A stretch of DNA of 64,000 nt from Mycobacterium simulans. Lineage in GTDB: Bacteria > Actinomycetota > Actinomycetes > Mycobacteriales > Mycobacteriaceae. The translations under genes were made by a program, and so were the position numbers. How positions within the stretch are numbered: the first letter of the stretch is position 1; each line of letters begins with the position of its first letter. Below are positions 40,215 through 44,652 of the stretch, in pieces. Location of the stretch: positions 656,412 to 720,411 of the forward strand of contig NZ_OCVX01000003.1 in the NCBI RefSeq assembly GCF_900232995.1. Reading direction: 5' to 3'. The notes under the pieces are model-generated. The model saw only the letters and a list, made by a program, of their open reading frames with translations, had not been told where the DNA came from and did no database searches.

Positions 40215-40239
40215 ATACCGCCTGAAGTTAGCCCCGAAG

Positions 40240-40258
40240 TTAGCATTGCATAAGCTAA
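40240..40258. promoter_or_regulatory. IdeR-like iron box upstream of eccA3
   Basis: TTAGCATTGCATAAGCTAA, a 19-bp inverted repeat with perfect TTAGC/GCTAA arms, matches the IdeR consensus TTAGGTTAGGCTAACCTAA at 13-14 of 19 positions depending on strand. Its centre is about 35 bp before the eccA3 start. H37Rv ESX-3 is known to be repressed by IdeR with iron. The flank also holds GAAGTTAGC twice, 12 bp apart (40224-40232, 40236-40244). Confidence 0.6.
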
Positions 40259-40412
40259 CTGTCGAGACGGCCGATCCAAGTCGATTCGTCGCTGCGCTCC
40301 CAATTTAGCGGCATTGACCTGGGCATTACGGCCGCGAGCCGGGTTTGCGGACACGACTGCAACGTCATAGCACACAGCACCTCCACAGCCAGGGATCTCT
40401 AGGCCGCACAGC

Positions 40413-41924
40413 TTACTGAATATGATTTTCATTATCGACCTCGGGGTCCCAAGTGCCGGGCACCATGGGCACTACCGGTCCATCACCGAACCGGTCGCCG
40501 GCCAGTGTGGCCAGCCCGGACGCCTCGCCTACATCGTCTCGGCGCGCCGTTCCAGCGAGACCCACCGTGTCGGCACCTCGGTCCGACACCGCCACAGCGG
40601 GATCGGCATTCATATCAGAATCCAGGCTCAGGAATTCATGGCGGTACCCCAGGTCGTGCAACGCCCCGCGGCGACGGCGAGGAGCGCGCTGCTTGTCACG
40701 CGCCGACCCGACAGCCGCCGTTTGGGTCGCTACCAGATCAGGCTCCGGCGCCTTGCGTTGTGCACCGGCACTCATCCCCGAGCCGAACCCGGCGCCGGGA
40801 CCACCGACCAGATAAGGGTAGGCGGCACCTTCCACACCCGCGGCTGGCGGCGGTGGGACTCCGCTCGCCGCTGTCGGGGCTGGCGTAGCGGCCAGCGCCG
40901 ACGCTGAGGCCGGGCCGGGAGGCGCCGACGCCGGCGCCCCCGCGACCAGTGAACTCCCGACGGCGTGCTGGCGGGGTTCGGGGGCGGCAGCGATCTGAGC
41001 CGGTGCTGCCGGGACTATCCCGTGCTGAACTCCAGCCAGCCCGGTTAGCCCCGCGGTGCCGCTCGCCAACCCGAGGTTGGTGGCCGGTAGGGCGAGCGTG
41101 AGGGCCTGCAATTGCGGGCTGAACGTATTGATCGCTTCACCCAGGTGCTCGACCTCGTCGGCTACAAGCAGGGGGATGTGTGACTGCAACTGCTCGATCG
41201 CCCCGATTGGATTCTCCGGAAATTCCGCCAGGTCTCTACCTACGGTTTGGAAAATCTCAGTGAATCGGTTTACCCACCAACTCAATTGCGTCGGATCGCC
41301 GCTGTCGTCGTCGATGATTCCCCCGTCACTATCACTGCCGCCACCATCGCCGTCATAGTCACCGTGGTCGACGTGGTCGGCGTGGGCTGTCTCGATTTCC
41401 GGTGCCGCGTCGGCGCGCGGCGCTGACGCCACCGCCGTCGAAGAGACCGCCTGATAGGTGGCCATGGTGGTGGCCGCCTGGACCCACATCCGGACATAAT
41501 CGGCCTCGTTGAGCGCGATAGGGATGGTGTTGATCCCAAAGAGGTTCGTCGCGACCAAAGCCGCATGGATCGCATGGTTGGCGGCTAGCTCCGCCAAGGT
41601 CGGCATCGCCGCCAAGGCCGAGCTGAAGGCCGCCGCAGCAATCTCGTGCTGGGAAGCCACCTCCGCGCTATTTGCGCTCGCCCGGATCAGCCACGCCAGG
41701 TAGGGCACGTGTGAGGCCACATATCGCGCGGCGGTTGGCCCGTCCCATGCCCCGGCTTGCACCGCCGCCAATATTCCGCCGAGTTCGTCTGCCACCGAGG
41801 CGTATGCGGCACTCAGCGAACCCCAGCCATCCGCCGCGGCCAACAAACCGCCGGGCCCCGGACCGCTGCTGAGCTGGGCCGAGTGGATCTCCGGAGGCAT
41901 AGCCATCCACACCGGCGCGGTCAT
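40413..41924 (-). CDS. PPE-family protein (PPW subfamily) between the methyltransferase and eccA3
   Basis: 503 residues. PPE domain 1 to about 180 (MAMPPEIHSAQLSSGPGPGG, GINTIPIALNEADYVRMW), close to PPE4 and PPE3-like. Directly after it comes an Asp/His-rich insert (about 181-210, with H181, H184, H187 and some ten Asp, e.g. HADHVDHGDYDGDGG), then a hydrophobic middle, an Ala/Pro linker and the PPW-type end PMVPGTWDPE; the GFxGT motif reads GLAGT. No PE gene is next to it. I recall no PPE gene at this position in H37Rv, where Rv0281 is followed by eccA3, so it looks like a duplicate of the PPE3-type gene. Its last codons overlap a Zur-like box. Export by ESX-3 and metal binding are inferred. 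Confidence 0.88.
   Translation of the reverse strand: MTAPVWMAMPPEIHSAQLSSGPGPGGLLAAADGWGSLSAAYASVADELGGILAAVQAGAWDGPTAARYVASHVPYLAWLIRASANSAEVASQHEIAAAAFSSALAAMPTLAELAANHAIHAALVATNLFGINTIPIALNEADYVRMWVQAATTMATYQAVSSTAVASAPRADAAPEIETAHADHVDHGDYDGDGGGSDSDGGIIDDDSGDPTQLSWWVNRFTEIFQTVGRDLAEFPENPIGAIEQLQSHIPLLVADEVEHLGEAINTFSPQLQALTLALPATNLGLASGTAGLTGLAGVQHGIVPAAPAQIAAAPEPRQHAVGSSLVAGAPASAPPGPASASALAATPAPTAASGVPPPPAAGVEGAAYPYLVGGPGAGFGSGMSAGAQRKAPEPDLVATQTAAVGSARDKQRAPRRRRGALHDLGYRHEFLSLDSDMNADPAVAVSDRGADTVGLAGTARRDDVGEASGLATLAGDRFGDGPVVPMVPGTWDPEVDNENHIQ
40417..40431. promoter_or_regulatory. Zur-like zinc box overlapping the end of the PPE gene, upstream of eccA3
   Basis: TGAATATGATTTTCA matches the actinobacterial Zur-type palindrome TGAAAATGATTTTCA at 14 of 15 positions. 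It lies in the last codons of the upstream PPE gene, ending 2 bp before its stop, and about 190 bp before the eccA3 start. M. tuberculosis ESX-3 is known to be Zur-repressed. Confidence 0.55.
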
Positions 41925-42039
41925 ACGCGTCGTGCCTCGCTAGTGGGCGACGCACCCAGCACGTAACTAGTAGTCGGGCTCCGCCGGCAAAAGTTCCGGG
42001 CCGACGCAGACTATATTCAAATGTCTCTCAAATATGGCC

Positions 42040-42951: not shown

Positions 42952-42961
42952 CCAAACGACA

Positions 42962-44586
42962 CTACGCCGGGTGCTCGCCGGTCTCGTCCGGGTTCCACGT
43001 GCCCGGGATCATCGGCAGCGTTGGGCCGCTACCGAACTCGTCACCGGCCAGTGTGGTCAAGCCCGCGGCTGCGCCGCTCGTTTCCTTGTGTGCCGTGCCC
43101 GCGAAGCCCAGATTTCTGACACCCTGATCGGAGGCCGACACATCTGGCTCACTGCCCCGCGGCACGCCCCAGTCGGGGTCAACGTCGACGTTCATATCCA
43201 TAAACTCGTCGCCGTAGCCCCGCCGCGTGGCGCGGCGTCGCCGCCGCGCCCGTGCTTGCTCTCGTGCGGCGGCCGCGGCCGCCAGTGCGGCGCTATCGGG
43301 CTCCGGCGCTTTCTTCTTAGCGCTGGCACTTGCGCTGGAGCCCATACCCGAGCCCAATCCGATGCCGGGAGGACCGACGGCGTACGGGTAGCCGAAGCCC
43401 GCGACGCTGCTGACGGTCGTCGGCGGCGGTGTCGGCGCACTGGCGACAGCGCTCGCCGCGGGCGCGGGCGCGGGAGCCACCGTCGACACGGGCGCGGCCG
43501 GTGCTGCGGCAATCGGTGCCATCGCGACCGCCGGCAACATTGCGGGCGGGGCCGCTGGCGGCGCCACCGCGGGGATTGCCGCGGGGTGAATGCCCGCCAG
43601 ACCCGCCAGCCCCGCGAAGCCGGTCACCGCTCCCAAGTTGGAGATGGCCGAGCCGAGTGCGACCGCAAGCAATTGCGGGGACTGGCTTAGCGCTTGAACG
43701 ATCTGCAGTAGGTGTGTCGGGTAGTCGAACAACAGAAGTTCAAAATAGGCCTGGAAAGCCTCCACCGGATTTGTAAACAGTTCCTGGACAAATGTTTCAA
43801 AGTCCTGACTGAATTCGAGGGCACGAACAACCCACCAGATCGGCTCGGCCGCGTTCGTATAGTCCTCGAAGGGGATCCCATTCATTGTGCCTTCGGCGGG
43901 ATCCCAGATCAGGCGGCCACCACTGATGATGCGCAACAGCTCCGCAACGAGGTAATCGATTGGGGTCGGGTTGCCCCCATGTTCGTGGTCATGGTCGTCC
44001 TCGTGGTCGTCGTCGGCCGCTTCGGCTGTCACGATCTGAGGCGCAGGGGTGGTCTGTGGTGTCGACCCCACCGCCGCGCCGGAGGCCGCTTCGTAGGTCG
44101 CCATCGTGGTCGCGGCCTGAATCCACATCCGCACGTAGTCGGCCTCGTTAATCGCAATCGGAATCGTGTTGATGCCAAAGAAATTCGTCGCCACCAACAC
44201 CCCGTGGATGATGTGGTTCGCCGCCAGCTCGGGCAATGTTGGCATGGCCGCCAGCGCCGCGCTGTAGGCCGCGGCCACGGCCTCGTGCCGCGCCGCCGCC
44301 TCCGCGCTGGCCGAGCTGGCGTGCATCAACCACGCCAGATATGGCGCGTGGGCGGCCACGTACTGCTCGGCACTGGGCCCCCCCCGGGCCCCTCCGCACT
44401 GGGCCCCTCCCAGGCCCCTCCCTGCACCGCACCCAGCAGCGCGATGAGTTCGTCCGCCACCGCGGCGTACTCAGTGTTTAACGACGACCACGCAGCCCCG
44501 GCCGACAGCAGCGACCCGGGCCCCGGGCCACTGCTGAGCAACGCCGAATGCACCTCAGGCGGCGACGCCATCCACACCGACGTCAT
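42962..44586 (-). pseudogene. PPE3: PPE3-like PPE-family gene, frameshifted by a 26-bp duplication (Rv0280 orthologue)
   Basis: Starts at ATG 44586 with a GGAGGAG ribosome site and reads MTSVWMASPPEVHSALLSSG up to WEGPSAE; a second frame continues from AAHAPYLAWLMHASS to the end at 42962. A 26-bp tandem repeat (44370-44421) causes the shift; removing one copy restores WEGPSAEQYVAAHAPYLAW exactly. The restored protein has about 536 residues: PPE domain, a His/acidic cluster DDDHEDDHDHEH (residues 183-194, nt 43979-44014), hydrophobic middle, GFAGT and PMIPGTW (PPW subfamily). A near-perfect Zur-like box precedes it. Either a recent inactivation, a slippable on/off state, or a sequencing/assembly error in a C/G-rich stretch. 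The downstream frame shows no further decay. Confidence 0.85.
44370..44421. repeat. 26-bp imperfect tandem duplication breaking the PPE3-like gene
   Basis: Two adjacent 26-bp units, 44370-44395 and 44396-44421, both starting GCACTGGGCCCC and ending GGCCCCTCC, differ at only two positions (C/T and G/A). Unit length is not a multiple of three, so the extra unit shifts the frame. The first unit contains an 8-C run. Confidence 0.9.
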
Positions 44587-44637
44587 ACAACGCAACTCCT
44601 CCGCTGGCGATTCGCTAGCTTCGGAGCTTACTGAACG

Positions 44638-44652
44638 TGAAAACCATTTTCA
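44638..44652. promoter_or_regulatory. Zur-like zinc box upstream of the PPE3-like gene
   Basis: TGAAAACCATTTTCA matches the Zur-type palindrome TGAAAATCATTTTCA at 14 of 15 positions. It lies 52-66 bp before the PPE start ATG 44586, a fitting operator position. Known context: the PPE3-Rv0281 pair of M. tuberculosis is reported in the Zur regulon. Confidence 0.65.

What the first reader, a model, noticed from the sequence alone, without database searches (positions are those of the whole stretch)
40217..44652. Zur-boxed PPE / methyltransferase / PPE module with His/Asp-rich inserts next to ESX-3
Seen: two PPW-type PPE genes flank an Rv0281-type methyltransferase, directly upstream of eccA3. Both PPE proteins carry an insert right after the PPE domain that PPE4 lacks: DDDHEDDHDHEH in the PPE3-like one (4 His and 8 acidic residues in 12) and HADHVDHGDYDGDGG in the other. 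A near-perfect Zur-like box precedes the outer gene. Known: ESX-3 is zinc- and iron-regulated, and PE/PPE proteins serve nutrient uptake at the outer membrane. Inference: these are zinc-binding surface or uptake PPE proteins made under zinc starvation and exported by ESX-3.
Basis: partly seen in the sequence, partly recalled or inferred. Interest (0 to 1): 0.75.

Follow-up and report, generated by a model that had tools for sequence, protein, structure and literature searches.

The report
Zinc-controlled PPE proteins with histidine loops
In a Mycobacterium genome and many relatives, including the tuberculosis bacterium, PPE proteins encoded next to the ESX-3 secretion system carry a histidine- and aspartate-rich stretch, and they are predicted to be made when zinc is scarce, exported, and used to catch zinc at the cell surface.

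Summary
Two PPE-PPW genes flank a TIGR00027 methyltransferase gene directly upstream of eccA3, and both carry a His/acidic insert just after the PPE domain, which PPE4 lacks. In this assembly the outer (PPE3-like) gene is split over two frames. Of 81 complete PPE linkers read in this genome only these two are His/acid-rich. In relatives, including M. tuberculosis PPE3, the insert keeps its composition while its length varies widely, and it changes state at least 10 times on a tree. The box is wider than the insert: 40 of 118 His-poor PPE-PPW ORFs also have one, and kinship-corrected contrasts show no coupling. Zur control of ppe3 is published; my searches found no paper on the insert. Best reading: an ESX-3-exported surface zinc trap with a disordered His/Asp loop, working like the Zur-controlled loops of ZnuA or PA4063. 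Zinc binding and export are inferred. It offers an untested alternative to the recent reading of ppe3 as a lactate-uptake gene served by ESX-5.

The parts
44638..44652 (.). Zur-type box 5' of the PPE3-like gene (15-bp core)
   Evidence: 0 mismatches to TGAAAAYSATTTTCA on +, 1 on -; 24-bp matrix score 24.9
44326..44595 (-). PPE3-like gene, first fragment (start of the PPE domain)
   Evidence: ORF of 89 aa; PF00823 positions 2-62
42962..44359 (-). PPE3-like gene, second fragment in another frame (rest of the PPE domain, insert, central region, PPW end)
   Evidence: ORF of 465 aa; PF00823 positions 65-163 and PF18878
43979..44014 (-). His/acidic insert DDDHEDDHDHEH of the PPE3-like gene
   Evidence: sequence
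42040..42951 (-). Rv0281-type SAM-dependent methyltransferase gene
   Evidence: PF04072 215 bits; TIGR00027 281.5 bits, cut-off 93.55
40413..41924 (-). inner PPE-PPW gene (PPE-B)
   Evidence: PF00823 202.6 bits, PF18878 63.6 bits
41340..41384 (-). His/acidic insert HADHVDHGDYDGDGG of PPE-B
   Evidence: sequence
40417..40431 (.). second Zur-type box, in the last codons of PPE-B and about 200 bp upstream of eccA3
   Evidence: 1 mismatch on either strand; matrix score 37.2
38313..40214 (-). eccA3 (first ESX-3 gene)
   Evidence: PF21545 and AAA; relatives
30847..32364 (-). PPE4-like PPE-PPW gene of ESX-3, the comparison without insert (ends computed from the script's offsets)
   Evidence: PPE domain place G000:C3:688272-688760, PPW place, linker without His

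Best explanation
The module is a pair of PPE-PPW genes flanking a methyltransferase gene behind a Zur-type box upstream of eccA3, and its PPE proteins carry a His/Asp/Glu-rich stretch that is predicted to be a disordered loop, likely binds zinc, and would be exported by ESX-3 to catch zinc at the cell surface during zinc starvation. Shown here: gene order, boxes, inserts, the restriction of the insert to these two genes among the PPE linkers read in this genome, and its wide but repeatedly changing distribution in relatives. Shown by others for the orthologue: Zur control of ppe3 and Zur binding to its promoter. Inferred: zinc binding by the loop (loose and many-sited, as for ZnuA-type loops), export through EspG3/ESX-3 with a PE partner, and hand-over of the metal to an envelope channel or an inner-membrane importer. 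In this assembly the PPE3-like copy is frame-broken, so here PPE-B may be the only working carrier.
For: Only 2 of 81 PPE linkers read in the genome have the insert, both in this module. In relatives the insert runs from 8 to 42 residues but stays H/D/E/G, and the label needs 11 changes on the tree, at least 10 on supported branches, against a shuffled mean of 30. Of 35 His+ PPE-PPW ORFs 27 have a box of 24 or more within 450 bp, of 118 His- 40 (Fisher p 1.1e-5 without correction for kinship); of the 8 without, L219 scores 23.7 and L256 21.3, and window PPE-B and L064's inner PPE stand further down behind a boxed PPE gene. M. tuberculosis PPE3 carries DDDHDHDHDH. Same-strand PPE genes lie upstream of eccA3 in 33 of 42 loci with a box at eccA3 and in 3 of 36 without. 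Model: low-confidence loop 180-193, covering nearly all of the insert (183-194), between two ordered parts. Nearest solved PPE domain: PPE4 of PE5-PPE4-EspG3, 252 bits against 98 for PPE15 and 63 for PPE41. Published: Zur binding and regulation (PMC7863910; PMC10956863); ESX-3 needed in low zinc in M. tuberculosis and not in M. smegmatis, mechanism unknown (PMC3796483); a Zur-context protein with disordered His-rich loops binds zinc (PMC8561739).
Against: The kinship-corrected test finds no coupling of box and insert (about one pair each way, eight without difference). A large boxed clade lacks the insert. Two other Zur-boxed PPE-PPW genes of this genome lack it. Codon reuse shows a mild trace of repeat slippage (297 of 433 against 278 in shuffles, 9 of 1000 reach it). 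The PPE3-like gene is broken in this assembly. ppe3 mutants were read as lactate/ESX-5 (PMC13102306), and ppe3 insertions cost fitness with high mycobactin, which points to iron (PMC7058343). No metal binding was measured.
Confidence: 0.5

Rival explanations
1. PPE3 is a nutrient channel component (lactate and others), possibly exported by ESX-5; the loop is a general cation or gating loop and zinc control is secondary.
For: ppe3 mutants grow poorly on several carbon and nitrogen sources, and esx-5 mutants share the lactate defect (PMC13102306, passages). PE15/PPE20, a PPE-PPW pair linked to ESX-3, carries calcium (PMC9731449, passages).
Against: The PPE domain is closest to the ESX-3 substrate PPE4. 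The defect spans many nutrients in Sauton's medium but is absent in 7H9, which metal shortage could also explain. It does not explain the His/Asp insert.
Confidence: 0.2
2. The insert is a low-complexity spacer that grows and shrinks by repeat slippage and has no metal function.
For: Lengths vary widely; L089 and L065 show unit repeats; consecutive equal residues reuse codons slightly more than shuffles; many homologues do without it.
Against: Codons are mixed while residues stay H/D/E/G (19 of 637 others; the segments were chosen for H/D/E, so this is biased); the other 79 linkers read in the genome do not show it.
Confidence: 0.17
3. The loop is a zinc sensor rather than a trap: zinc bound to it changes secretion, assembly or gating of the PE/PPE complex.
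For: Such a regulatory role has been proposed for the His-rich loop of ZnuA and considered for PA4063 (PMC8561739, passages). The loop lies directly between the PPE domain and the central region.
Against: No secretion or structural data; the loop is missing in many boxed homologues.
Confidence: 0.13

Closest known systems
PPE3 (Rv0280) - Rv0281 - ESX-3 of the M. tuberculosis complex, Zur regulon
   Same: Orthologous PPE, methyltransferase and eccA3 order (gene order of that genome recalled; relatives), Zur-controlled promoter (PMC7863910, PMC10956863), His/Asp insert present in the protein
   Different: The window has a second PPE-PPW gene with its own insert before eccA3, and a frame-broken PPE3; the insert was not described in the papers I searched
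PPE4 (Rv0286) with PE5 and EspG3 (PDB 6uuj)
   Same: PPE-PPW type; nearest solved PPE domain
   Different: No His/acidic insert; linked to mycobactin iron use (PMC7028111, PMC7058343, passages)
PE15/PPE20 calcium channel
   Same: PPE-PPW protein linked to ESX-3 that binds and carries a divalent cation (PMC9731449, passages)
   Different: Calcium, not under a zinc repressor in the passages seen; its linker was not compared here
His-rich loops of Zur-regulated ZnuA and PA4063
   Same: Disordered His-rich loops made in zinc shortage, thought to collect zinc loosely (PMC8561739, passages)
   Different: Unrelated folds; periplasmic proteins of Gram-negative bacteria
YezP, zinc-binding substrate of a type VI secretion system; ZepA exoprotein
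   Same: A secreted zinc-binding protein serves zinc uptake (PMC4489752, abstract; PMC10957091, passages)
   Different: Other secretion routes and families
M. avium subsp. paratuberculosis zinc island
   Same: Zur-boxed PPE genes and ESX-3 induced by zinc starvation; box at -236 of eccA3 (PMC4298942, passages)
   Different: Its Zur-boxed PPE proteins were not examined for the insert here

Membership tests
PPE family (PF00823) | N-terminal PPE domain over the curated cut-off | tested here: met
   PPE-B 202.6 bits; the PPE3-like gene matches in two frames, 70.1 and 119.4 bits, cut-off 26
PPE-PPW subfamily (PF18878) | PPW C-terminal region over the curated cut-off | tested here: met
   63.6 and 67.2 bits, cut-off 27
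TIGR00027 SAM-dependent methyltransferase | NCBIfam model over cut-off | tested here: met
   281.5 bits, cut-off 93.55
Zur regulon | Zur box in the promoter region | tested here: met
   two sites against 0.01 matches expected; the outer one scores below the training boxes when flanks count
Zur regulon | derepression without zinc or Zur | not testable with these tools
   published for orthologues only
ESX-3 substrate | secretion lost without ESX-3; EspG3 binding | not testable with these tools
   sequence is nearest PPE4; ESX-5 proposed by PMC13102306
Zinc-binding His-rich loop | measured zinc binding | not testable with these tools
   composition and predicted disorder only
ZnuA-type solute-binding protein | solute-binding protein domain | tested here: not met
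   no such Pfam match at E <= 0.001; fold search gives PE/PPE complexes at E <= 0.001
Intact PPE3 orthologue | one open reading frame | tested here: not met
   split over two frames in this assembly; one frame in G057

The most novel reading that the evidence does not exclude
ESX-3 exports, with a PE partner, a dedicated zinc gateway of the mycobacterial outer envelope: PPE3, whose disordered His/Asp loop is the capture or selectivity element. This would be the still unknown mechanism by which ESX-3 gives zinc access to the cell, and the many-nutrient growth defect of ppe3 mutants in Sauton's medium would be metal starvation rather than failed lactate import.
Probability: 0.25. Interest if true: 0.85.

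Novelty: new variant of a known kind. Interest (0 to 1): 0.62.

Why it matters
How zinc crosses the mycobacterial envelope, and what ESX-3 contributes in low zinc, were left open in PMC3796483 (passages). A Zur-controlled PPE protein with a ZnuA-like loop gives a concrete and cheap test. It also touches current work: ppe3 was reported in 2026 as a nutrient-uptake gene (PMC13102306) and as a strong target of selection within the Zur regulon of M. tuberculosis (PMC13284343, passages); the passages I read mention no insert.

Tried and rejected
Insert and box as one inherited package: rejected, the box is wider than the insert and independent pairs show no coupling. Insert as a general PPE feature: rejected. 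Solute-binding protein: rejected. IdeR box by the recalled consensus with up to 3 mismatches in the window: none. A direct repeat of 12 bp or more in 44300-44500 as the cause of the frame break: none reported. His of the inner PPE as a family trait: rejected, 2 of 33 rows. Literature: PPE + histidine-rich + zinc + ESX-3 and PPE protein + His-rich + metal + mycobacter gave 0 papers; zinc-binding + PPE protein + Zur + histidine gave 1, whose passages do not describe the insert; PPE3 + histidine gave 37, 20 of them listed, none opened for this point. 'Not in print' rests on these searches of an open-licence library only.
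Full report
What is there. The window lies in a genome of 6.19 Mb in 105 contigs whose relatives are named Mycobacterium. On the minus strand, in order of transcription: a Zur-type box (44638-44652), a PPE3-like PPE-PPW gene, a TIGR00027/LCM methyltransferase gene (42040-42951), a second PPE-PPW gene, here PPE-B (40413-41924), a second Zur-type box inside its last codons (40417-40431), then eccA3 (38313-40214). The PPE3-like gene does not read through in this assembly: its first fragment (44326-44595) and the rest (42962-44359) lie in different frames. 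The closest relative found (G057, eccA3 97% identical) has one open frame, so this is either a pseudogene or an assembly error in a G+C-rich stretch. It was not mended.

The inserts. Directly after the PPE domain the PPE3-like protein has DDDHEDDHDHEH and PPE-B has HADHVDHGDYDGDGG. I read 81 distinct complete PPE linkers of this genome; one search lists 99 PPE-domain places, several of them partial. Only these two linkers have at least 3 His and 3 acidic residues within 16 residues. Of the 12 PPE-PPW genes the other ten lack it (one of them, in L150, has 4 scattered His), including two that stand directly behind Zur-type boxes in a zinc island at C3:1.79-1.81 Mb.

Zur boxes. The degenerate core TGAAAAYSATTTTCA with up to 2 mismatches has 38 strand matches in the genome against 3 for the reversed pattern, and 4 in the window against 0.01 expected. 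A 24-bp matrix from the 19 MAP boxes of PMC4298942 scores the eccA3 box 37.2 and the outer box 24.9; the training boxes run from 28.8 to 44.3. In relatives boxes before PPE3 homologues often lie at about -35 to -67, others as far as about -366.

Relatives. I fetched the eccA3-upstream regions of 80 of the 109 places that one search lists outside this genome (105 of 118 genomes, this one included, had a match; the 29 left out are mostly more distant hits and contig ends) and 80 named loci. With the zinc island and the window they gave 153 PPE-PPW-like ORFs, some genomes counted twice. Of these 35 are His+: 27 have a box of 24 or more within 450 bp, 8 do not; of 118 His- ORFs 40 have one and 78 do not (Fisher p 1.1e-5). 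This is not corrected for kinship, and the corrected test shows no coupling: of 10 independent pairs the box goes the same way in 1.0, the other way in 1.1 and does not differ in 7.9 on average. The plain reading is that Zur control is the older, wider trait and that His-rich inserts came or went inside boxed clades. The His label needs 11 changes on the tree of 144 rows, at least 10 on supported branches, against 30 when shuffled; gains and losses cannot be told apart, and the tree is a quick one. M. tuberculosis PPE3 has AAEAADDDHDHDHDHGGEP. A large clade of PPE3 homologues (M. scrofulaceum, M. parascrofulaceum and others) has boxes but Ser/Asp/Asn-type linkers. In the PPE-B clade 2 of 33 rows are His-rich; many of its linkers are acidic instead, of the form DSDDDGIVDNDGG.

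Slippage or selection. Over 34 inserts, consecutive equal residues use the same codon in 297 of 433 cases against 278 in shuffles (9 of 1000 shuffles reach it), so repeat growth plays some part. Yet codons are mixed (CAC 153, CAT 42; GAC 187, GAT 48; GAG 60, GAA 40), Asp and Glu interchange, and other residues are rare (19 of 637; the segments were chosen for H/D/E, which biases this figure). I take this as a hint of constraint on the protein, not as proof of metal binding.

Structure and export. The nearest solved domain is PPE4 in PE5-PPE4-EspG3 (252 bits; PPE15 98; PPE41 63), and the fold search agrees. The AlphaFold2 model of the G057 orthologue (66 rows, mean pLDDT 63.9, pTM 0.38) has an ordered PPE bundle, a low-confidence stretch 180-193 that covers nearly all of the insert, and ordered helices from 200 to about 300. 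With the review statement that PPE-PPW proteins likely depend on ESX-3 (PMC7028111, passages), ESX-3 export is the better guess; PMC13102306 (passages) proposes ESX-5.

PPE genes and zinc control of ESX-3. Among 78 loci of at least 5 kb, a same-strand PPE gene lies upstream of eccA3 in 33 of 42 with a box at eccA3 and in 3 of 36 without; the methyltransferase is found in 38 of 42 and 17 of 36. This may mostly reflect one split of the genus, but it fits the report that ESX-3 is zinc-regulated and needed in low zinc in M. tuberculosis and not in M. smegmatis (PMC3796483, abstract and passages).

How it most likely works. In zinc shortage Zur would leave the boxes (shown by others for orthologues: PMC7863910; PMC10956863); PPE3, the methyltransferase, PPE-B and ESX-3 would be made together; the PPE proteins would be exported by ESX-3; and the His/Asp loop would collect zinc loosely and pass it on. 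The role of the methyltransferase is unknown; it is found upstream of eccA3 at more loci than the PPE genes. A side point: ppe3 transposon mutants grow normally in 7H9 but poorly on several carbon and nitrogen sources, which were tested in Sauton's medium (PMC13102306), and Sauton's without added zinc is the zinc-limited medium of PMC8121289 (passages). Metal shortage is thus an untested alternative to lactate import. Against it: standard Sauton's contains added zinc, esx-5 mutants share the lactate defect, and the loss of fitness of ppe3 insertions with high mycobactin points to iron (PMC7058343).

Verdict. A real, recurrent and, by my searches, undescribed feature on a known Zur-regulated locus: a new variant of a known kind. 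Metal binding, the identity of the metal and export remain to be shown.

Noticed in passing
window 40417-40431: Second, stronger Zur-type box inside the last codons of PPE-B, about 200 bp upstream of eccA3.
   Followed up: yes
L190 (G000 C3:1786900-1806890): Zinc island with several Zur-type boxes, a Fur-family gene, a CobW gene, ABC transporter genes, a PE gene and two Zur-boxed PPE-PPW genes without His insert; small ORFs that look by eye like alternative ribosomal proteins.
   Followed up: partly
L077 and L097, divergent PPE gene beside eccA3: The linker is Met/Gly-rich (GMGNGSGMGGGMGNMPGMG type), a possible site for a softer metal.
   Followed up: no
P0031 (M. spongiae): PPE3-like protein whose linker has a CDEC motif in place of His.
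   Followed up: no
PPE-B homologues, for example L068, L084, L222: Conserved acidic linker DSDDDGIVDNDGG, like an EF-hand-type DxDxDG loop (likeness recalled).
   Followed up: no
L061:3306-7665: In the sister genome G057 a hemerythrin-type and a multicopper oxidase gene, among others, stand between the methyltransferase gene and eccA3, where PPE-B lies in the window.
   Followed up: partly
L066, L088; window 44326-44359: PPE3-like genes are split over frames in these two relatives as well, so breaks here may recur or reflect DNA that is hard to sequence.
   Followed up: no
window 51582-52010 (-): Small ORF ending in GWHGGPGWHGG repeats, without a Pfam match.
   Followed up: partly
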